Assembly: GCA_029250605.1 (NCBI GenBank)
Contig: JAQXEZ010000012.1
Coordinates: forward strand, 1 to 64,000
Source: Candidatus Thalassarchaeaceae archaeon
GTDB lineage: Archaea; Thermoplasmatota; Poseidoniia; Poseidoniales; Thalassarchaeaceae
Length of the DNA: 64,000 nt
Direction: 5' to 3'
In this document: positions 4,599 through 48,111 of the stretch, piece by piece
Numbering within the stretch: the first letter of the stretch is position 1
Layout of the letters: the number at the start of each line of letters is the position of its first letter
Notes under the pieces: model-generated
The model's input: only the letters and a program-made list of their open reading frames with translations
Told to the model about the DNA's origin: nothing
Databases searched by the model: none
Translations under genes and position numbers: made by a program

Positions 4599-5110
4599 CA
4601 CTTTCCACCTCCTATCGACTTCTTTGTAGTGGCCACTGCCTTGGCGATTCCCTCTCCGATGTGCTCGCCGTTGATCCTTCCTTCCGAGGGAAGGACCTCG
4701 TCCGAGTGTGGGATCTCCATGCCGGCATCGACCATTCCCTTCAGGGCAGCATATGCCCTGTTTCCGGATGAAGATGCTGCTAGCCCGATGTCCAGGATGG
4801 CCTGAGAGTGGCCGTTCGATATTGCCGAGGTGGCCATTGCGAATCCGGCTAGGTAGCATGCAGGGACTGACTTCCTTGAAGCGTCTGAGGGCCACTTGTG
4901 CGAGTCAACGAGGGACTTGCCCGTGATTGACGCCAGCACTCTGTCACCTTCTGGCTCGTACGCCACTAGTTGGCAGGTTACTTGGGTGTTCGAGACACGT
5001 ACGACTGCCCGGGGTGCCCCTCCGCGGAGCATCCTCGACCTTCGGTGGTAGTCAGTCTCAGCGTTTCTCCTTCTCTTGAATCTAAGTCTCTGGTTTCTTC
5101 CCTTTGCCAT
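4598..5110 (-). CDS. rpl18: 50S ribosomal protein L18 (uL18)
   Basis: A 170-residue archaeal L18, the 5S rRNA-binding protein of the central protuberance. Family features are the basic N-terminus (RNQRLRFKRRRNAETDYHRR) and the conserved GLAASSSGNRAYAALKG region near residue 115. The ATG at 5108-5110 gives the start MAKGRNQ; a GTG one codon upstream is possible. It overlaps the end of rpl19e by one base and precedes rps5. Confidence 0.96.
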   Translation of the reverse strand: MAKGRNQRLRFKRRRNAETDYHRRSRMLRGGAPRAVVRVSNTQVTCQLVAYEPEGDRVLASITGKSLVDSHKWPSDASRKSVPACYLAGFAMATSAISNGHSQAILDIGLAASSSGNRAYAALKGMVDAGMEIPHSDEVLPSEGRINGEHIGEGIAKAVATTKKSIGGGK

Positions 5111-5586
5111 CACTCATCACCTCCCAGTGAAATCCCATCCAGTTCTATGTTGCTCCTCAGGTGAGATGTGGAACGGTAGGATCCGCCCTTCGCCTTGCGG
5201 TAGAAGTACCTGTATTGCGAGGGGGTGATCTTGCTCCCCTCCCTGAGTTCCTTGAGGACCCTCCTCTGGGCCCTTATCTTGGACATCCACCTCTGCTTTC
5301 GGGGGCTTCGGGAATTCGCGCTACCGCTTCTGGAGCCATGGCCCTTCCTCCTCCCCTTGGACTTCTGGAATGCGGACTTGCGAGCCCTGGAACGGCTCGT
5401 GCCCTTGATTGGCTTAGCCTTGATTATCCCATCTTCTATGAGGAGCCTCACGTCATTCCTCTGGACTGCATCAGCGACTTCGCTGAGGTAGTCGGGGTTG
5501 ACCCATATTCTGTGGATTCCCACGGTCTTGCCCTCCTTCCTCGAGAGGATCTCGGCTGCCATCCTCTTCTGGTTTGACAAGAACAT
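5110..5586 (-). CDS. rpl19e: 50S ribosomal protein L19e (eL19)
   Basis: A 158-residue archaeal/eukaryotic-type protein with no bacterial homologue in this position. It starts MFLSNQKRMAAEILSRK and contains the typical VGIHRIWVNPDYL stretch, then a long basic helix rich in R, K and S (residues 60-115). It contributes to the intersubunit face. It overlaps rpl32e and rpl18 by one base at each end, showing tight coupling in the archaeal L32e-L19e-L18 order. Confidence 0.97.
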   Translation of the reverse strand: MFLSNQKRMAAEILSRKEGKTVGIHRIWVNPDYLSEVADAVQRNDVRLLIEDGIIKAKPIKGTSRSRARKSAFQKSKGRRKGHGSRSGSANSRSPRKQRWMSKIRAQRRVLKELREGSKITPSQYRYFYRKAKGGSYRSTSHLRSNIELDGISLGGDE

Positions 5587-6281
5587 CAGAGATCACCCCT
5601 CTTGTCTATCTGGCGCCGATTCAGGACCCTCAGGCCCAACTCGTCTGCCCTGTCGTGGATTCGTGATCTCTTCCTGTTTCCTACGCTCGAGCCTATTCTC
5701 ACTGCTTGCTTCTCTGGGTCGAGCCCGTCTAGGTGGTCTGCCTTGTGGACGATGACCTCCTCGAATCCAGAGGGGTGCAGTCCTCTAGCGGCTGCGACCT
5801 TGCCGTACCCTACGCGGGCCATGGGGGTGCGGTACTTCCTGTTCTTCCTCATGCTCGAGTCATCCCCCTTCGGCTTCCTGTATCCGGTCTTGGATAGTCT
5901 CCTGTACCTGAACCACTCTTGCCTGCGGAACGTGGGCTGCTTCTTGCTCTGCTCTGAGCGCATCTTGAGTGCGGATTTGGTGGATTCGTCCAAGACTGGC
6001 TTCTGCCTTGCTGTGTGCAATACGTCCCATTCCTCGAAGTCGCCCTCTTCCTCGAAGTCGCCCTCTTCCTCGTCCGGGGATTCTTCCTTGGGGATCTCTT
6101 CCTTGGGGATCTCTTCCTTGGGTTCCTCTTGGAGAGTCTCATCGGGAGTCTCTGCCGTGGTGTCCTCTCCCTCGCTTAACCTTGCGATTAGATCTGCCTT
6201 CTTTCCAGAGACTGGTAGGCCCCTTTCCCTGAGTAGTTCCTTCAACTCAGCGACTGTCAGATTCTCGTATGCCATTCTCAT
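5586..6281 (-). CDS. rpl32e: 50S ribosomal protein L32e (eL32) with N-terminal SAP-like domain
   Basis: The eL32 core occupies about residues 110-231 (FRRQEWFRYRRLSKTGYRKP, then the ARGLHPSGFEEV stretch). Ahead of it is a roughly 35-residue SAP-like helix-extension-helix motif (LTVAELKELLRERGLPVSGK, residues 8-27, continuing KADLIARL). Next comes a highly acidic linker with short internal repeats (EEIPK twice and EEEGDF). Total length is 231 against about 130 for a bare L32e. SAP motifs usually bind nucleic acid; that role here is inference. ATG could be 6281 or two codons later (MAYENL). The gene overlaps rpl6 by 4 bases. Confidence 0.93.
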   Translation of the reverse strand: MRMAYENLTVAELKELLRERGLPVSGKKADLIARLSEGEDTTAETPDETLQEEPKEEIPKEEIPKEESPDEEEGDFEEEGDFEEWDVLHTARQKPVLDESTKSALKMRSEQSKKQPTFRRQEWFRYRRLSKTGYRKPKGDDSSMRKNRKYRTPMARVGYGKVAAARGLHPSGFEEVIVHKADHLDGLDPEKQAVRIGSSVGNRKRSRIHDRADELGLRVLNRRQIDKRGDL

Positions 6282-6829
6282 GCCCCCTTGGAAGTGATGT
6301 ATATTCCGTCCTGGAATACTCTAGGATCCCTCTTCTTTACCTTGCAGGCCTTCTCTATGTTTGCCGCTGACTGGCCAACCTTCTCTCGGTCGGCCCCTGT
6401 AACAATTACGTCGGATTTCCCCTCGATCTTCACTTGGACCTCCGAGGGAGTCCAAGGTAGCTTAGCCACCCTAGGGACCTTCTCACCGAGCATATTGGTG
6501 ATTGTGAACTTGTTTCCATCGACCTTGAGGGTCATCGGGAAGTGGCTGAAAACTGCCTTTAGGCGGTATTCGAATCCCTCGTCTAGGCCCTTGACCATGT
6601 TTCGGAGATGTGCCGCCCAGGTTCCGGCTATTGCCTTCTCGGACCTTCTTGGAAGTTTGCAGTACACCTCTATCCCGTCATCAATCTGCCTCAGGGAGAC
6701 GCTGTTGTGTGTGAATTCTCGAGAGAGGCTGTTGCCGTCCTTGTTGAGCGTCACGGAATTGCCATCCATGCTGGCGCCCATTCCTTCGGGCAGGATGATG
6801 CTGTGGGACACTATAGCTACTCTTGGCAT
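6278..6829 (-). CDS. rpl6: 50S ribosomal protein L6 (uL6)
   Basis: A 183-residue large-subunit protein with two tandem L6 folds. The start PRVAIVSHSIILPEGM and the TWAAHLRNMVKGLDEGFEY stretch near residue 90 are typical of archaeal L6, as is the second-domain NIEKACKVKKRDPRVFQDGI motif near the C-terminus. It binds 23S rRNA near the factor-binding site. The gene lies 11 bases after rps8 and overlaps rpl32e by 4 bases. Confidence 0.97.
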   Translation of the reverse strand: MPRVAIVSHSIILPEGMGASMDGNSVTLNKDGNSLSREFTHNSVSLRQIDDGIEVYCKLPRRSEKAIAGTWAAHLRNMVKGLDEGFEYRLKAVFSHFPMTLKVDGNKFTITNMLGEKVPRVAKLPWTPSEVQVKIEGKSDVIVTGADREKVGQSAANIEKACKVKKRDPRVFQDGIYITSKGA

Positions 6830-39709: not shown

Positions 39710-40780
39710 TCATTCCCCTCGCGCCCATGATGGCGGTTTACTGTATTCTTCTGAGTCTCCCCTGGTCTGCTTCGGTTCGGGCTCATCATCGTCGGAATTT
39801 CCTAGGGAGTAATCTGTGCAACATGGGCATGGCTGCACCCAATGACCAGGAGAGACCTCCCTCATTGAGAGGTTCATCGTTATGCTCTTCTCCCATTCAG
39901 GATGATGCATGCGATGCCCGAAAGCACATCCCGGAGGGGGGTCCACGGGAGAAGGGACGTCCCCCTCAACTGGTGCCTTATCCCTCCTGGAACTGGGGTC
40001 TGGATTGGGTATTGCGGATATCAGGACCTTGGTGTAGGCATGCCTTGGATTTCTATAGATCTCATCAGCATCTGCCAACTCAACAATCTTGCCAAGATAC
40101 ATCACCGCGACCCTATCGGAAATGTGCCTAACTACAGCCAAGTCGTGAGAAATGAAGACGAAAGTGAGGTCTCTGCTCTTCTGGATGCCCTCGAGTAGGT
40201 TGAGCACCTGTGCCTGTACCGAGACGTCCAATGCGCTGGTCGGCTCGTCGAGCAAAATGAACTCGGGGTCAAGTGAAAGGGCGCGTGCCAGTGCTATCCT
40301 TTGTTTCTGCCCGCCTGAGAACTCGTGAGGATATCTGGTCATGTGCTCGCTCTTTAGGCCGACTGAATCCAGAAGTTCGACGACCCTCTGTGTCAATTCG
40401 ACACCATCCATGAGCCCATTCACCAGGAGGGGCTCACCAACGATCGAGCGAACTGCCATCCGAGGGTTCATCGAACCCCCGGGGTCTTGGAAAACGATCT
40501 GCATCTTCCTTCTGATTTCCTTGTTAGGTATCTTCCTGATATCCTCTCCGGAATAGCGAACCGAGCCATCTGTAATCGGTATTAGCCCCATGAGAACCCT
40601 GCCCAGTGTAGTCTTGCCGCATCCTGACTCCCCCACGATTCCCAGGGTCTCGCCTCGTTGTATCTGCAGGCTGACTCCGTCAACGGCCCTGACGAACTTC
40701 TTAGTTTGGGAGAGGAAGCCCCCTTTGATGGGAAACCACTTCCGCAGGTTTTCGATTTCTATTAGTGGTTCTTCGGCCAT
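39710..40780 (-). CDS. dppF: Dipeptide/oligopeptide ABC transporter ATP-binding protein (DppF/OppF type)
   Basis: A 356-residue ABC ATPase. Walker A GESGCGKTT (near residue 50), Q-loop VFQDPGGSMNPR, signature EFSGGQKQRIALARAL, Walker B FILLDEPTSALD and H-loop SHDLAVV are all present in order without insertions, unlike its partner DppD. A C-terminal oligopeptide-transporter region follows, with CPCC near the end. ATG at 40778-40780 (MAEEPLIEIENL) was chosen because earlier codons overlap dppD. It should pair with DppD to energise peptide uptake. Confidence 0.95.
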   Translation of the reverse strand: MAEEPLIEIENLRKWFPIKGGFLSQTKKFVRAVDGVSLQIQRGETLGIVGESGCGKTTLGRVLMGLIPITDGSVRYSGEDIRKIPNKEIRRKMQIVFQDPGGSMNPRMAVRSIVGEPLLVNGLMDGVELTQRVVELLDSVGLKSEHMTRYPHEFSGGQKQRIALARALSLDPEFILLDEPTSALDVSVQAQVLNLLEGIQKSRDLTFVFISHDLAVVRHISDRVAVMYLGKIVELADADEIYRNPRHAYTKVLISAIPNPDPSSRRDKAPVEGDVPSPVDPPPGCAFGHRMHHPEWEKSITMNLSMREVSPGHWVQPCPCCTDYSLGNSDDDEPEPKQTRGDSEEYSKPPSWARGE

Positions 40781-40784
40781 TTTC

Positions 40785-42557
40785 TCACTCCCACTTGTCC
40801 TCTGACTCATCCAAGCAAATCGGACATGCCTCAACCCAGTGGCCTGGGCTTGACTCGATCATCTGGGGACGGGTGATGAGTGTGTCCCCATACCTCTCCA
40901 TCCTCTGACAGAACCGGCACCCTCTGACGAAGTCGGAAGGGTTCGCGACTTGTCCAGGAATTGCTGGCAGAATCGATTTCCTGGTTGATGCGATGTTTGG
41001 GGTGCAAGCCATCAATCCCCTGGTGTATGCATGCAATGGATTGGCAAATAGCTCTTTCACCGGGGCTCTCTCGACAACCCTACCGGCGTACATCACCGTA
41101 ACGTCGTCGCACATCTCTGCGATTACCCCGAGATCATGGGTGATTAGTAGGATGGATGTGCCCTTATCATCTCGAAGGTCCATCATCAGTTTGAGTATCT
41201 GGGCCTGAATCGTTACATCGAGGGCCGTGGTAGGCTCGTCTGCTATCAGTAGCTTTGGCTCGCAGGACATCATCATCCCGATCATTACTCTCTGACGCAT
41301 CCCTCCCGAGAGCTCGTGAGGGTACATCTTCACTACCGCCTCCGGATTGGGTATCCTCACATCCTCCAGAATCTCTTGGACCTGTCTAGAATGGGCTGGA
41401 TCGAGCCTTAGGAAGTCGAGCCAGACAATTACAGGCAACGCCAGAAGGGATGAGATAACGACCATGCCCATCAAGGAAGAAAAAGGCATCCACAGCATTA
41501 GGAAGACCACTATGGTGACGGCTAGTGCGGCAGGGAGTCCTTGTAGGGAAACTCCGAATCGATGGAGGGAGAGCCAGACGTACGGATTCTGACTCCTCAG
41601 CCACATTTCATAACCAGTTATCTCAGCATCCAAATGCCTGTACTCTGAGAAAACCGTCCCTGTGCTTGGATCTATACTATCCATGGAGAAACCGGACCCT
41701 GAGAAGCCCGTCTCCATTGACACCCTCTCTTCAAGCGTCATTTCATCCGTAAATAGTGACTTTACCTTCCAGATGCTCGAGACGGAGTACAACAGTGGGA
41801 CTGCCAGCAGGAGGGCCCATGTCCAAGATTGGGCCTCGTCGGCGAATTCCCATCGGTGCGCAAGGGTCACGAAAGCCATGATGGAGAGGAAAGCAGCTGA
41901 GGACTGTGGCTTGGCCACCAATGTCCTGTAGATTAGTGAGAATGGGCTGATAATCGCCTCGCCGATTCGATTGATTGTAGGAGTCTCCGGGTCCACGAGT
42001 CTGTCGTGCTCACGCATCACCTCGGAAATCTGCTTTTCCACGGAATAGAGTGGGTTCAATGCAGTCATCGGCTCCTGGAAAATCATGCTAATCTCGTTGC
42101 CTCGGACCCAACGCATGAATTTCTCATGGGCACGTGATTCATGTGCGAAGAAGAAGCCGACCCCCCAAGAAACGGAAGAAACTAGTCCGAACCCGAGTAG
42201 AATGTTCCTGCCTTGTATCGGATCGATGAGGATAGTCCAGAATCCTCCGAATATGGAGAGCAAGACCGATGCCACGACTATGTAGCCAGAGATTTCCTTG
42301 ATCTTGTTGATTGATTCCGGGTCTCTGAACAGGAGTTCTTCGCCCTCGTACTTGACGCTCCCCTCGTCGACCTCGCAGGTGGCAAGACCTATCGTGACAA
42401 GAGAAGTGACTGATTTGCCGCATCCAGACTCCCCGACTAATCCCATTATCTGACCCTTATTCACCTCCAAGTCAACAGAGTTGAGTGCCTCCACTTGCCC
42501 GTCGAGTGTATCGAAATGAACTCTCAAGCCGCTAATCTCCAGCAATTTCTCAGACAT
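40785..42557 (-). CDS. dppD: Peptide ABC transporter ATP-binding protein (DppD type) with membrane helices inserted in the ATPase domain
   Basis: A 590-residue ABC ATPase against about 330 for the family. Conserved parts in order are Walker A GESGCGKS (42-49), Q-loop Q161 in MIFQEPMTALNP, signature LSGGM (416-420), Walker B LLIADEP (436-442, catalytic E441) and H474. Two inserts interrupt it. Insert 1 (about 84-150) lies between Walker A and the Q-loop with hydrophobic helices at about 90-111 and 118-138. Insert 2 (about 195-385) lies between the Q-loop and signature with helices at about 219-234, 246-266, 343-358 and 362-381. The C-terminal region has C547, C550, C578 and C581, positions that fit the cysteine cluster of DppD. 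Catalytic residues look intact. Confidence 0.92.
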   Translation of the reverse strand: MSEKLLEISGLRVHFDTLDGQVEALNSVDLEVNKGQIMGLVGESGCGKSVTSLVTIGLATCEVDEGSVKYEGEELLFRDPESINKIKEISGYIVVASVLLSIFGGFWTILIDPIQGRNILLGFGLVSSVSWGVGFFFAHESRAHEKFMRWVRGNEISMIFQEPMTALNPLYSVEKQISEVMREHDRLVDPETPTINRIGEAIISPFSLIYRTLVAKPQSSAAFLSIMAFVTLAHRWEFADEAQSWTWALLLAVPLLYSVSSIWKVKSLFTDEMTLEERVSMETGFSGSGFSMDSIDPSTGTVFSEYRHLDAEITGYEMWLRSQNPYVWLSLHRFGVSLQGLPAALAVTIVVFLMLWMPFSSLMGMVVISSLLALPVIVWLDFLRLDPAHSRQVQEILEDVRIPNPEAVVKMYPHELSGGMRQRVMIGMMMSCEPKLLIADEPTTALDVTIQAQILKLMMDLRDDKGTSILLITHDLGVIAEMCDDVTVMYAGRVVERAPVKELFANPLHAYTRGLMACTPNIASTRKSILPAIPGQVANPSDFVRGCRFCQRMERYGDTLITRPQMIESSPGHWVEACPICLDESEDKWE

Positions 42558-42561
42558 CCCA

Positions 42562-44412
42562 TCACCTCCTGTTCTTTGGGTCCACTACGTCCCTTATTCC
42601 ATCGCCGAGGAGATTGAATCCAAGGACGGTGACGGCGATAGCCAGCCCCGGATAGAGCATCAAGTGAGGGTCGTTGAGGAAGTAGCGGCGGCTCTCGGAT
42701 ACGAGGATGCCCCACTCGGCCGTCCCCGACTTTGCACCGAGTCCGATGAACGAGAGCCCTGATGCGGAAAGGATCGTCCCCCCGATATCGAGAGTGAATG
42801 CGACAAGGAGGGGTGCCCATGCGTTTGGCAGTATGTGTCGGAACATTATCCTCCCAGAGGGGGCTCCGACGCTCCTGGCGGCCTCAACGAAGTTCATCTC
42901 CTTCACGTAAAGTACCTGGCCCCGGATTAGCCTAGCATAGCCGGGCCATCCCGTGAAAATCAGCGCGGCCTGAATCTTCCAAAGTCTATCGAAATCCTTG
43001 ATCAGGGTGATTTCCCCCCCGTCTGCTCCCGAGAACCGGAATAGAAGGACGATTGCGGCAGAGACCACAATCGTCCTCATGGTCAGGTAACGCCATGGGT
43101 TTGTCCAATCAAAGGAATTAGAGATCCTGTTCGTGGCGCCATCGAGTTTGGAATCCTCGATGAACTTCCTATCTGCGAATGTAATCACCCCGACCACGAT
43201 AATGATTGAGAGAGAGGCGATTATCCTCCATGCCCTGCTATCGAATTGTTCGAAGAAAGACGACCATAATTGGAAGTAGAGGATGATCACGAGTATTGGG
43301 AGGGTAAGCCAATATCTGTATCCAATCGCTATGTTCATCGTTCGAGATTTGAGTTCCTGGACCCTGACGTCGTCGAAGACGGTGTTTGTGATATATGATC
43401 TGAAAAACGATGCTAGCAACAATATCGGAAGAATGACGCCCAACCAGACAGGAATCGTCAGGCTCGTGACAGAACCCATTGCGGCTACGAATGCCATGGC
43501 CAGAATAAGCCCTGGAACGGCGAAGAAGATGTCGCATATCCTCATTATCACCTCGTCTGTCCTGCCTCCATAGTATCCGCTAATACTCCCAACTATTGTC
43601 CCGATAGTAACGGTTAGGACTGCGACTGTGAAGCCGATCTTCAGTGAGACACGGGAACCGTAAAGCACCTTGCTGAACAGATCCTGGCCCGTGTCTGTCG
43701 TTCCGAAGATGCAGACATCATAGCCATCGGGAAGCCACCAGTGGTGCATATCACTATTGTCGAATTCGTAGGTAACCCAGACTCCTAGATTCAAGGAGGA
43801 GTTGTCGTAGAGTTCCTGGGTTAGGACTAGTATCGACGAGTTGTCTGGGTGAATGTAGAGGAGAGATGAGTTCAGATCATAGCCCTTGGAGTCTTCAATC
43901 TTGATTATCTTGATCGCTGAGAGTGTTTTCCGATAGTACCTATTGTCGTCCCCGACCTTATCATCTGACTCAGCGACAACCTCTTCCGAGAATAATGCTG
44001 ATCTGGTGTTCGTGATGATCTTCTGCTCGTGCCAATCGCATCCCTCATCGAATGGCGCCAGCCTCCTTGGCTCGTAGTCTATGGACCACAAATCCTCTGT
44101 GTCCTGGAGATTCCGGTATGGATGCTCGACCGCTATATGATCTGCGAATACGGAAATCAGAGTGACGGAGACTACCATGAATAGTCCCAACATGGCTAGG
44201 AGGGAGCGCCGGTAAATCTTCCAACTTCGCCTCAAGTCGCTACCGGACTGGATGATTGCGAGCAGAATCCTTCGCTGACTCTCCTTGCGATCCTCCCTCC
44301 CCCTCTCCCACGCACCTGTTTGGATGGTGGTTGATTCCTGTTGGTCATTTTCGCTGACCTTGATCCCCGTAATGGGGTCTATCCGGTCGGACTTTCCATC
44401 CCCTCGACTCAT
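42562..44412 (-). CDS. dppC: Peptide ABC transporter permease (DppC type) with extra membrane segment insert
   Basis: A 616-residue permease, twice the usual length (about 300). The DppC core is clear: RRSLLAMLGLFMVV helix, FGTTDTGQDLFSKVLYGSR, GSISGYYGGRTDEVIMRICD, the EAA loop NFVEAARSVGAPSGRIMFRHILPN (in two parts at about 507-530), and GLSFIGLGAKSGTAEWG. One insert (about 98-235) replaces the first extracellular loop. A second (about 315-480) separates the AAMGS helix end from LIFTGWPGYARLIRG and holds roughly four hydrophobic segments (319-337, 367-385, 396-413, 445-460). The gene starts 4 bases before the dppB stop, a translational overlap. Confidence 0.92.
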   Translation of the reverse strand: MSRGDGKSDRIDPITGIKVSENDQQESTTIQTGAWERGREDRKESQRRILLAIIQSGSDLRRSWKIYRRSLLAMLGLFMVVSVTLISVFADHIAVEHPYRNLQDTEDLWSIDYEPRRLAPFDEGCDWHEQKIITNTRSALFSEEVVAESDDKVGDDNRYYRKTLSAIKIIKIEDSKGYDLNSSLLYIHPDNSSILVLTQELYDNSSLNLGVWVTYEFDNSDMHHWWLPDGYDVCIFGTTDTGQDLFSKVLYGSRVSLKIGFTVAVLTVTIGTIVGSISGYYGGRTDEVIMRICDIFFAVPGLILAMAFVAAMGSVTSLTIPVWLGVILPILLLASFFRSYITNTVFDDVRVQELKSRTMNIAIGYRYWLTLPILVIILYFQLWSSFFEQFDSRAWRIIASLSIIIVVGVITFADRKFIEDSKLDGATNRISNSFDWTNPWRYLTMRTIVVSAAIVLLFRFSGADGGEITLIKDFDRLWKIQAALIFTGWPGYARLIRGQVLYVKEMNFVEAARSVGAPSGRIMFRHILPNAWAPLLVAFTLDIGGTILSASGLSFIGLGAKSGTAEWGILVSESRRYFLNDPHLMLYPGLAIAVTVLGFNLLGDGIRDVVDPKNRR

Positions 44413-45569
44413 TCCAACCTCACCCTCGGGTCAATAATGGCATACGTGATGTCGACGATCAGATTGGAAAGCAAGAAGATAATCGATGTGATTAGCGTCA
44501 CACCCATGATCACGGTGAAGTCCAGATAGTTGATCGACTCGACAGCCACCCTCCCCATCCCATTGAATGCGAAGATTGTCTCGGTCAACACTGCCCCTCC
44601 TATGGCCCCTCCAATGGAGAATCCCAGTATTGTTACGATGGGGACAAGAGCGTTCCTGCATGCGTGAACTAGCACCACCCGAGATTCAGAGAGGCCCTTC
44701 GCACGGGCGGTCCGTACGTAATCCTCATTCAGAACCTCGAGCAGGCTTGCCCTCATGTACCTCAGCAGCGAACCTGCTGAAGAAACGCCAAGTGCGATGC
44801 AAGGGAGTGCCAGATGCATCAGCGTGTCCTTGAAGAGGAGGCCTCTCGTACCGAATTCCTCTGGGAGAGTTGATAGTTTAGTGTCAGTCACAAACCAGCT
44901 ATCCACCAAGTGGAATCCGGTGCCTCCGACAGGATAGAACCAGGCAAATCCGTCTTCGGGATATGTGAAGCTCGGGTCGTGTCTGCCATAAATCGGGAAG
45001 CACCCGCCGTCAGTCCCCAGGATGGGATCGCATATGCCACCGTTCTCGGTGCCTGTTGCGAAGTATAGCTGTAGCATCATTGCAAACCAGAAAATCGGCA
45101 GGCTGACGAAAGCGATGCCGAAGAATCTCATAACGTGGTCGAACATCTGGTCCTGCCTGACGGCGCTGAGTATCCCCAGTGTTATCCCAACTGGATAGGC
45201 GATCATCAGTGCCATGAACGACATCTCCAGGGTTATCGGAGCAGCATCCTTGACGACGTCTAATACCGGCCTGTGGTATGTTATCGATTCACCCCAGTCT
45301 CCGTCCAATAGCCGAGTGATGTACTTCTCGAACTGAACGCTGACTGGCTGGTTCATCCCAAGTCTCTCTCGATTCGCCTCATATGCCGAGATTGGTTCTC
45401 CCTCATCCGTGTAGTCCACTACGATGCCGCACTTGTCTCCGCATTGCGCGGCCGCAGGGTCTGCAGGAATCAGATGGGCTATTGCGAATGTGAATACCAC
45501 CACCCCAATTATCACTGGGATTAGCAACAACAATCGGCGGACGACGAACTCGTGCAGCTTCATCTTCAC
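44409..45569 (-). CDS. dppB: Peptide ABC transporter permease (DppB type)
   Basis: A 386-residue permease. It has the N-terminal FVVRRLLLLIPVIIGVVVFT helix, a short extracellular part with CGDKCG, the typical RLLDGDWGESITYHRPVL stretch, and the EAA motif region VLNEDYVRTARAKGLSES then ACRNALVPIVTILGF. The loop at about 170-240 is enlarged compared with family members and contains C-x9-type pairs (GGICDPILGTDGGCFP), a possible disulfide. It is the first gene of the permease pair and lies 143 bases after the dppA stop. Confidence 0.93.
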   Translation of the reverse strand: MKMKLHEFVVRRLLLLIPVIIGVVVFTFAIAHLIPADPAAAQCGDKCGIVVDYTDEGEPISAYEANRERLGMNQPVSVQFEKYITRLLDGDWGESITYHRPVLDVVKDAAPITLEMSFMALMIAYPVGITLGILSAVRQDQMFDHVMRFFGIAFVSLPIFWFAMMLQLYFATGTENGGICDPILGTDGGCFPIYGRHDPSFTYPEDGFAWFYPVGGTGFHLVDSWFVTDTKLSTLPEEFGTRGLLFKDTLMHLALPCIALGVSSAGSLLRYMRASLLEVLNEDYVRTARAKGLSESRVVLVHACRNALVPIVTILGFSIGGAIGGAVLTETIFAFNGMGRVAVESINYLDFTVIMGVTLITSIIFLLSNLIVDITYAIIDPRVRLE

Positions 45570-45712: not shown

Positions 45713-47974
45713 CTAGCAGGAGCCGACAAGTGCGCCGTCGACCATTGGCAGCTTGTCGTAGTCGAACCAGTGGGCCGACCCGATAGCTGCGTATGGTGGG
45801 CTGCAGATGTCGTCGTGCTTGACGCCGATTCCGTTGTATTGGCCGATGATGATCATGTTTGGATCAGCGGTCCATGCAGCGAAGGCATCCACGTACGCCT
45901 GCTCACGCGTGGCGTCGTCCTGAGAGGTCCTTCCTATTACGAGAGCGTCATTGACTGCCGAGTTCTCGTATCCTGTCCCATATGCGTCTCCGCCGATGGA
46001 GTGGCCGCCCGCGAACGGTGACCAGTAGTTGTCAGGGTCTAGGTAGTCAGGAGCCCATCCGCTGAAGCGGATATCCCAAGTGCTGGTGTAGTACATGGTC
46101 AGGTACTCTGCCCATGGCTTTGCGTCACCAGCGGTGGCGACACCGATGGTTCCCAGCGCCTCTGCGATCTGTCCTGCCATGGCAATTCGGTAGTCGTTGC
46201 CCTCGTTGGCCATGATGCGCAGGATGTTCGGTAGGCGGCACTCGTCGCCGGTTCTGTCGGCTTCAGCGACCACGGTAGCTGCGCCGCTAACGGATAGCGA
46301 AGCGCAGTCGTACTGGCGGATGAATCCTGCATTCTCCAGGATTGCCTCTGCATTGGCCAGATCGTACGTGAATGTCTCAGTCTGAGTATCAGCGTACAGG
46401 AAACCGGTTGGGATAGGTCCGTACTGAGGAGCCAACGAGTTGTCGTAGGTCTCCCTTCGGTGAGTCTCGTAGTCGAAAGCGTACGAGACTGCCTCACGAA
46501 GTGCAGCCGTCTCCATGACGTTCATGTCCATGGTTCCGTCTCCGTCGGAGTCGTGGTTCAGCACGAGTGACGAGTTAGCGTCAGTGTTGGATGTATCCTC
46601 TCCAGCGTCTAGGGCCTGCGGGTGCAGGTTGAAGGCGGCTAGGGTCGTTGTGAAGGTCTCCCTGTAGGAGCAGATGTATCCATCCTTGCTGGCTACGTTT
46701 GGCTTGTCGTCTAGTGCAGCGTCCTCTCCGGAGTCTAGTGCGCCGTTTCCGTTTTCGTCGATATAGCAGAAGTTGATCAGGTCCTCGATGTTGACGCTGC
46801 CGAAGTCGACCTCGCCATCGGTGAAGGCCAGTAGCCTCGTCGATGCCTCAGTGACTATGGAGACTGTGTGGCGGTTGATGTTGTAGTCGCCACTCTCCCA
46901 GTAGATCCAGTTTGGAACTAGTACGAGCCTGTCCTCACGGACCCAGGACTGTACCATGTATGCGTTGGTTCCGGCTCCGTATGGGCCCTCGTCCATCCAT
47001 GCATGGCAGTAGTCGTCGGAGCTGACGTTTCCGTCGGCATCCAACTCGATTACTCGGTTAGCCTCGCAAAGATCTGCGTTGATCACAGCGCCCACGGTGT
47101 AGGCGATTGTGGAGATAAACGCAGACGATGGCGCGAACAGAGTAACGCTGAACGTGTTTGCAGCGTTATCGTACGTGAAGCTTGCTCCACCCATGTCGTG
47201 GTGGTTGCCGTCTGCGTCGTTGCAGTCGAAGCTCTGCTCCAGAATCCATCCAACGTGGCTGTCAGGGGAGCCGTATCCTAGAACGCGGCACCATGAGTAC
47301 ACGACGTCGGAGGCCTCCATCTTGTCACCATTGCTGAAGTAAACATCGTCACGTAGAGTGAAGGTGTAGGTTAGGCCATCAGTGCTGACGGAGTACCCCG
47401 TAGCGAGCCTCTCCTCGATGATAGCGTTTCCAGTACCATCGCCAGCGTACCTGTACAGAGTGTCGTAGACCTGCTCGATCACATCACCAGAGGCTGAGTC
47501 GTAGGCGTCATGAGGATCGATTGTAGAGGCGTCACCAATGGACATCTCGACTACCTCGCAAGGGTTGTTAGAACCCTGCTCACGGCACTTTCTGGACTTC
47601 TCTAGCTCGTATGTAGCGTTACCGAAGTCCATGGTTCCTGCAGCGTAGGCAGCCATGATGTCTGCCTGTGCCATCCCATAGTCGCAGGAGTTGTCGTTTT
47701 CCTCTGCGGCAGCATCGTAGTTGTTTGCTGCCATGTCGGTACATCCTGGGACCTTGTTCACAGTCTCCGTTACGGTCTCCGTTACCGTCTCAGTCACAGT
47801 TTCGGTTACGGTCAGGACGCATGCGTTGTTGCCGCTGTCTAGCGTGTAACCGTCTCCGATTGCGTCGCAGTCAGCTTGTGTCAGCGTCCTTTCCACATCC
47901 TCCCCAGCGCATCCCGCTAGGGCTGATGCAATCATCAGTGTGCATAATAGAAGAGCATTCGCTTTAGTCTTCAT
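45713..47974 (-). CDS. dppA: Peptide-binding lipoprotein of an ABC transporter (SBP family 5)
   Basis: A 753-residue extracellular solute-binding protein. A signal peptide ends in the lipobox LAGC with the lipidation cysteine at residue 22. A short cysteine-containing part (DCDAIGDGYTLDSGNNACV) is followed by a Thr-Val-Thr-Glu repeat linker at about residues 56-73. The SBP_bac_5 domain follows, with landmarks IDPHDAYDSASGDVIEQVYD, YTFTLRDDVYFSNGD and REAVSYAFDYETHR. It is longer than usual (about 530-600). The ATG at 47972-47974 (MKTKANALLLC) was chosen over an upstream start because it begins the signal peptide. It delivers peptides to DppBC. Confidence 0.94.
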   Translation of the reverse strand: MKTKANALLLCTLMIASALAGCAGEDVERTLTQADCDAIGDGYTLDSGNNACVLTVTETVTETVTETVTETVNKVPGCTDMAANNYDAAAEENDNSCDYGMAQADIMAAYAAGTMDFGNATYELEKSRKCREQGSNNPCEVVEMSIGDASTIDPHDAYDSASGDVIEQVYDTLYRYAGDGTGNAIIEERLATGYSVSTDGLTYTFTLRDDVYFSNGDKMEASDVVYSWCRVLGYGSPDSHVGWILEQSFDCNDADGNHHDMGGASFTYDNAANTFSVTLFAPSSAFISTIAYTVGAVINADLCEANRVIELDADGNVSSDDYCHAWMDEGPYGAGTNAYMVQSWVREDRLVLVPNWIYWESGDYNINRHTVSIVTEASTRLLAFTDGEVDFGSVNIEDLINFCYIDENGNGALDSGEDAALDDKPNVASKDGYICSYRETFTTTLAAFNLHPQALDAGEDTSNTDANSSLVLNHDSDGDGTMDMNVMETAALREAVSYAFDYETHRRETYDNSLAPQYGPIPTGFLYADTQTETFTYDLANAEAILENAGFIRQYDCASLSVSGAATVVAEADRTGDECRLPNILRIMANEGNDYRIAMAGQIAEALGTIGVATAGDAKPWAEYLTMYYTSTWDIRFSGWAPDYLDPDNYWSPFAGGHSIGGDAYGTGYENSAVNDALVIGRTSQDDATREQAYVDAFAAWTADPNMIIIGQYNGIGVKHDDICSPPYAAIGSAHWFDYDKLPMVDGALVGSC
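47761..47815 (-). repeat. Tandem TVTE-coding repeat in dppA
   Basis: A 12-base unit encoding Thr-Val-Thr-Glu is repeated four to five times with mainly synonymous changes. It forms the linker between the lipid-anchored N-terminal part and the binding domain of the DppA-type lipoprotein, and is likely a stalk. Repeat number may vary between strains. Confidence 0.7.
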
Positions 47975-48111
47975 CGAGTCATTGAGACTATGATGTGTAT
48001 TTAGTATCACCCGAAAAAACCCCGCTTTTGGCCATTCAGAAATGGAAATGGCGCAATAATGGCTGAGAAATGAAGAGTATGTGGTTGATTTTCACATCAT
48101 TGATGATTAGG

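What the first reader, a model, noticed from the sequence alone, without database searches (positions are those of the whole stretch)
42562..44412. DppC permease doubled in size by an insert of about four hydrophobic segments
The insert at about residues 315-480 splits the normally continuous stretch before the EAA loop, the site that contacts the ATPase. Its ATPase partner DppD also carries membrane inserts, so the two may have evolved together and pack against each other. DppF and DppB lack comparable cytoplasmic-side inserts.
Basis: partly seen in the sequence, partly recalled or inferred. Interest (0 to 1): 0.66.

Follow-up and report, generated by a model that had tools for sequence, protein, structure and literature searches.

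The report
Archaeal dipeptide permease with extra membrane helices
In marine Thalassarchaeaceae archaea one membrane subunit of an ordinary peptide importer carries four extra membrane helices on its outer side, and its ATP-burning subunit DppD has probably become membrane-embedded too; the additions are real, but relatives show they are not a tightly matched pair.

Summary
The insert is real. DppC (616 aa) has +161 residues at 315-481 relative to E. coli DppC: four predicted membrane helices, conserved in 32 readable Thalassarchaeaceae operons, with a single origin. The "doubling" is only about half due to it; a 114-residue extracellular TM1-TM2 domain and about 40 N-terminal residues make up the rest. 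The insert sits in the TM3-TM4 loop, which is extracytoplasmic, and TM4 lies intact between it and the EAA loop. In the solved E. coli complex DppC docks on DppF, and DppD docks on DppB.

DppD does carry membrane helices at two sites (D1, two helices; D2, about four). D1 and full D2 accompany the DppC insert in 32/32 operons, but that is one clade. A D2 hairpin occurs without the DppC insert in a paralogous operon and in MGIII. Other Thermoplasmatota have hydrophilic inserts at the same DppD sites with a normal DppC. AapQ of the same genome has a four-helix insert at the same permease site with a normal ATPase. Insert lengths do not correlate. Contact could not be tested.

Best reading: an ordinary Dpp importer core with accreted peripheral membrane helices. 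New variant of a known kind.

The parts
42562..44412 (-). dppC, peptide ABC importer permease, 616 aa
   Evidence: PF00528 and OppC_N; best PDB sequence match E. coli DppC
43738..44100 (-). DppC residues 105-225: extracellular TM1-TM2 domain absent from E. coli DppC (+114 aa, mostly beta strands)
   Evidence: no Pfam match
42970..43470 (-). DppC residues 315-481: insert in the TM3-TM4 extracytoplasmic loop, four hydrophobic segments
43378..43449 (-). insert helix a (322-345)
   Evidence: AlphaFold model
43279..43371 (-). insert helix b (348-378)
43156..43236 (-). insert helix c (393-419)
43030..43080 (-). insert helix d (445-461), preceded by the conserved NPxRxLxxRT stretch
42901..42987 (-). 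DppC TM4 (476-504), intact between insert and EAA loop
42820..42894 (-). DppC EAA / coupling-helix region (507-531), nearly invariant
40785..42557 (-). dppD, ATPase subunit, 590 aa, Walker A, Q-loop, LSGG and Walker B intact
42117..42326 (-). DppD insert D1 (about residues 78-147), two membrane helices between Walker A and Q-loop
   Evidence: pLDDT mostly above 90
41394..41990 (-). DppD insert D2 (about residues 190-388), about four membrane helices between Q-loop and signature
44409..45569 (-). dppB, permease without extra membrane helices; K291 = E. coli DppB K243
39710..40834 (-). dppF, ATPase of normal architecture (Q-loop to signature 53 aa)
45713..48010 (-). dppA, substrate-binding protein (SBP_bac_5)

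Best explanation
This is a Dpp/Opp-type peptide ABC importer (dppABCDF operon) of Candidatus Thalassarchaeaceae with an ordinary six-helix DppC core, to which a peripheral four-helix membrane domain was added once through the outside-facing TM3-TM4 loop. The even number of helices lets the chain leave and return on the outer side, so TM4, the EAA loop and coupling to the ATPase (DppF, by homology) are untouched. Separately, DppD, the ATPase under DppB, grew membrane hairpins at two insertion-prone sites and has probably become an integral membrane subunit. Shown by computation: position, conservation, single origin, preserved core, charge pattern of the loops. Inferred: that the extra helices lie at the edge of the transporter as a structural or anchoring collar, and that transport itself works as in E. 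coli. The additions look like accretion seen in several importers of this genome rather than a matched DppC-DppD device.
For: Operon content and families. Insert exactly between Ec 159 and 166. TM3-TM4 periplasmic, EAA is TM4-TM5, DppC-DppF and DppB-DppD pairs (PMC12136057). The K243-E114 bridge residues map to DppB K291 (RTARAKG in every readable system-1 DppB) and invariant DppD E179. AlphaFold DppC: four insert helices framed by strands 318-321 and 467-471; core on 8z1x_B TMt 0.90. DppD model closest to OppD/DppD chains, TMt 0.80-0.84. Insert clade monophyletic, 35/35 tips, support 0.83; joined with the insert-free paralogues, support 0.94. Inserts evolve several times faster at amino-acid level than the core but dN well below dS. 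K+R enriched in the second cytoplasmic loop of the DppC insert and flanking DppD D1. AapQ: bacterial homologues have two, the window genome's has four, hydrophobic segments at the same TM3-TM4 site, with a normal 270-aa ATPase.
Against: No complex was predicted, so a peripheral location is inferred. Insert pLDDT is only about 60-83. DppC insert, D1 and full D2 all appear on the same branch and never separate afterwards in 32 operons, which a purely accretive view does not predict. Conserved NPxRxLxxRT in the DppC insert suggests some specific contact. The first cytoplasmic loop of the insert is not enriched in positive charge.
Confidence: 0.75

Rival explanations
1. The DppC insert and the DppD membrane inserts are a co-evolved pair that pack against each other in the membrane, tethering DppD to the permease.
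For: 32/32 operons with the DppC insert have D1 and multi-helix D2; none of the ten insert-free Poseidoniia operons examined has D1. Both were gained on the stem of the same clade.
Against: Single clade, so one event. D2 hairpin without DppC insert in 8 operons. DppC pairs with DppF, not DppD, in the E. coli structure. Lengths uncorrelated. No sequence homology among the inserts. The AapQ parallel lacks any ATPase insert.
Confidence: 0.2
2. The inserts are near-neutral, tolerated insertions at exposed loops with no role of their own.
For: They evolve several times faster than the core, vary in length and helix number, and match no known domain above cut-off.
Against: dN well below dS, invariant motifs within the insert, and no loss in 32 operons across several genera.
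Confidence: 0.15
3. The insert is an internal duplication of DppC core helices or a captured stand-alone membrane protein.
For: The BPD_transp_1 profile matched from residue 453, inside the insert's last helix, as well as the core.
Against: Profile comparison of insert with core gives probability below 1%; no second copy in the genome; Pfam hits are below cut-off.
Confidence: 0.05

Closest known systems
E. coli DppBCDF (PDB 8z1v-8z1z, PMC12136057)
   Same: Gene order, six-helix DppC core with EAA loop, DppD/DppF ATPase heterodimer, conserved DppB-K / DppD-E pair residues.
   Different: No TM3-TM4 membrane insert in DppC, no membrane inserts in DppD, canonical [4Fe-4S] cysteines.
AapQ (general L-amino acid ABC importer permease; bacterial homologues L291, L292 and the window genome's own)
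   Same: Extra hydrophobic segments inserted at the same TM3-TM4 position before the EAA helix: two in bacteria, four in this genome.
   Different: Different permease subfamily; its ATPase (270 aa) has no insert.
MalF of the maltose importer (from general knowledge)
   Same: Large extracytoplasmic domain between the first core helices, analogous to DppC 105-225, and extra membrane helices.
   Different: Extra helices are N-terminal, not in the TM3-TM4 loop; ATPase is normal.
DppD of other Thermoplasmatota (L258, L262, L285 and others)
   Same: Long inserts at the same two ATPase sites, Walker A to Q-loop and Q-loop to signature.
   Different: Those inserts are hydrophilic, some with a zinc-ribbon-like CxxC pair, and DppC is of normal size.

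Membership tests
Dpp/Opp peptide ABC importer | SBP_bac_5 binding protein, two BPD_transp_1 permeases, two ABC_tran + oligo_HPY ATPases in one operon | tested here: met
   order dppA-B-C-D-F
Dpp/Opp peptide ABC importer | DppC with OppC_N helix, MetI-fold core and EAA loop | tested here: met
   OppC_N above cut-off; core TMt 0.90 to E. coli DppC; EAA region invariant
Dpp/Opp peptide ABC importer | ATPase motifs (Walker A, Q-loop, signature, Walker B, H-loop) intact in DppD despite inserts | tested here: met
   invariant columns in 39 sequences
Dpp/Opp peptide ABC importer | Transports di/oligopeptides | not testable with these tools
   no assay; substrate inferred from family only
Named NCBIfam equivalogs (Opp4C, DppC and others) | Score above curated cut-off | tested here: not met
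   best Opp4C 237.5 bits against cut-off 350, so no specific equivalog name is justified; 'DppC' here is a family-level label
[4Fe-4S] DppD/DppF ATPase subtype of E. coli | C-x5-C-x6-C-x17-C in the C-terminal domain | tested here: not met
   window DppD has C-x2-C-x27-C-x2-C, DppF C-x32-CPCC; related operons keep the canonical motif
AapQ-like permease with TM3-TM4 helix insert | HEQRo/GltK-type permease sequence | tested here: not met
   DppC matches Opp/Dpp-type models; the resemblance is in insert position, not membership

The most novel reading that the evidence does not exclude
A peptide importer whose ATPase subunit DppD is an integral membrane protein, anchored by about six helices inserted inside the nucleotide-binding fold and docking on a four-helix collar contributed by DppC, so that the ATPase is held to the transporter by a membrane interface in addition to the coupling helices.
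Probability: 0.2. Interest if true: 0.65.

Novelty: new variant of a known kind. Interest (0 to 1): 0.42.

Why it matters
Nucleotide-binding subunits of ABC importers are textbook peripheral proteins. A clade in which one of them carries conserved membrane helices inside the ATPase fold, together with a permease enlarged by four helices, shows that the importer architecture tolerates, and may use, a membrane-embedded ATPase. It also gives a natural series for testing how importer subunits grow: no insert, hydrophilic insert, one hairpin, full set.

Tried and rejected
Internal duplication or shared origin of the DppC, D1 and D2 inserts: hhalign found none; only flanking non-membrane sequence matched between D2 versions. 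A stand-alone source gene in the genome: none. Known domain in the inserts: only sub-threshold Pfam hits. Apparent DppC-DppD fusion in G016 (899-aa frame): a run of unknown bases bridging two genes, not a fusion. Length co-variation: none. Literature on this insert: nothing found in four topical searches. A residue-coupling analysis between inserts was not attempted because about 30 related pairs are too few. The L027 entry (Walker A to Q-loop 25) is a pattern-matching slip; the alignment shows D1 there.

Full report
Setting. The window lies in a 1.48 Mb incomplete archaeal genome. Its closest insert-bearing relatives in named records are mostly Marine Group II MAGs, several called Candidatus Thalassarchaeum or Thalassarchaeaceae. 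The minus strand carries dppA, dppB, dppC, dppD, dppF between 48010 and 39710.

The observation. DppC is 616 aa. E. coli DppC (300 aa) aligns in three blocks: 17-63 to 58-104, 71-159 to 226-314, and 166-298 to 482-614. So three things were added: about 41 N-terminal residues, 114 residues between TM1 and TM2, and 161 residues between TM3 and TM4. It has four hydrophobic segments in most relatives (six in L035) and appears in 32 readable operons including the window. The insert-bearing DppC proteins form one clade of 35 tips, next to an insert-free paralogue found in three genomes, two of which (G004, G333) carry both systems.

Location. In the solved E. coli complex the TM3-TM4 region is periplasmic, the EAA coupling helix links TM4 and TM5, and DppB pairs with DppD while DppC pairs with DppF (PMC12136057). 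The archaeal insert therefore starts and ends outside, with TM4 unbroken before EAA. The AlphaFold model agrees: insert helices 322-345, 348-378, 393-419 and 445-461 lie between short strands 318-321 and 467-471, then TM4 at 476-504. The core still matches E. coli DppC with a target-normalised TM-score of 0.90. The residues of the E. coli DppB K243 to DppD E114 bridge are kept as DppB K291 and DppD E179, which is consistent with the same pairing here. DppF also has a glutamate at about that position by eye (sequence), so this alone does not prove the pairing.

DppD. The ATPase has two inserts. D1 lengthens the Walker A to Q-loop stretch to 106-112 residues with two membrane helices; D2 lengthens the Q-loop to signature stretch to 188-287 with about four. 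Fifty-one peptide-type ATPases from 47 other loci have 40-46 and 53-56 residues there. AlphaFold gives confident helices for D1 and the closest solved chains are OppD and DppD. Positive charges flank D1 on the cytoplasmic side and are nearly absent outside. DppF is normal at both sites.

Do the inserts go together? Every readable operon with the DppC insert has D1 and full D2. But this is one clade. In the insert-free paralogues (L037, L207, L208) D1 is absent and D2 is a single hairpin; in MGIII five of seven operons have a hairpin-bearing D2 with neither D1 nor a DppC insert. Elsewhere in Thermoplasmatota, DppD often has long hydrophilic inserts at the same two sites and DppC has no TM3-TM4 insert. 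So the DppD sites were insertion-prone without any change in DppC. In the other direction, AapQ of the same genome has four hydrophobic segments at the same TM3-TM4 site, bacterial AapQ has two, and the matching ATPase is an ordinary 270 aa. Lengths of the DppC loop and D2 do not correlate (not corrected for phylogeny). The inserts share no detectable homology.

Reading. The core is a standard Dpp importer and should work as one. The DppC insert is most likely a peripheral four-helix addition; D1 and D2 most likely make DppD membrane-embedded. Whether the two touch is open. Selection has kept the inserts (dN well below dS) but loosely: 47-54% identity in the DppC insert against 88-94% in the core for the same pairs.

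Not shown: expression, topology, substrate, contact.

Noticed in passing
window DppD 40815-40919 and DppF 39818-39928; L027-L041, L182-L208: The C-terminal [4Fe-4S] cysteine motif of DppD and DppF exists in two states, canonical C-x5-C-x6-C-x17-C or an altered C-x2-C-x27-C-x2-C (DppD) with C-x32-CPCC (DppF). The two subunits agree in 35 of 35 operons, and the DppF tree splits cleanly by state while the DppC tree mixes them, suggesting that dppF plus the 3' end of dppD moves as a recombining cassette and perhaps swaps an iron-sulphur site for another metal site.
   Followed up: partly
L209:3447-5711, L210, L212, L214, L215 (MGIII): DppB and DppC are fused in one 755-781 aa reading frame with several hydrophobic segments in the linker.
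   Followed up: no
L207:3718-6819, L208:4908-7208: The insert-free paralogous DppC (767-1034 aa frame) carries extra N-terminal hydrophobic segments and a long extracellular Asp-rich repeat region (DxDxDG type) between TM1 and TM2.
   Followed up: no
L039:2343-5057 and 5054-6739 (G000:C7): AapQ (905 aa) and AapM (562 aa) permeases of the same genome are also greatly enlarged with extra hydrophobic segments.
   Followed up: partly
L040:6486-8900 (G000:C10): A glutamine-type permease of 805 aa carries a long N-terminal region with a sub-cut-off match to the Ycf48 family.
   Followed up: no
L258, L260, L262, L263 (other Thermoplasmatota): DppD of these archaea has a CxxC...CxxC zinc-ribbon-like element inside the Q-loop to signature insert.
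   Followed up: no
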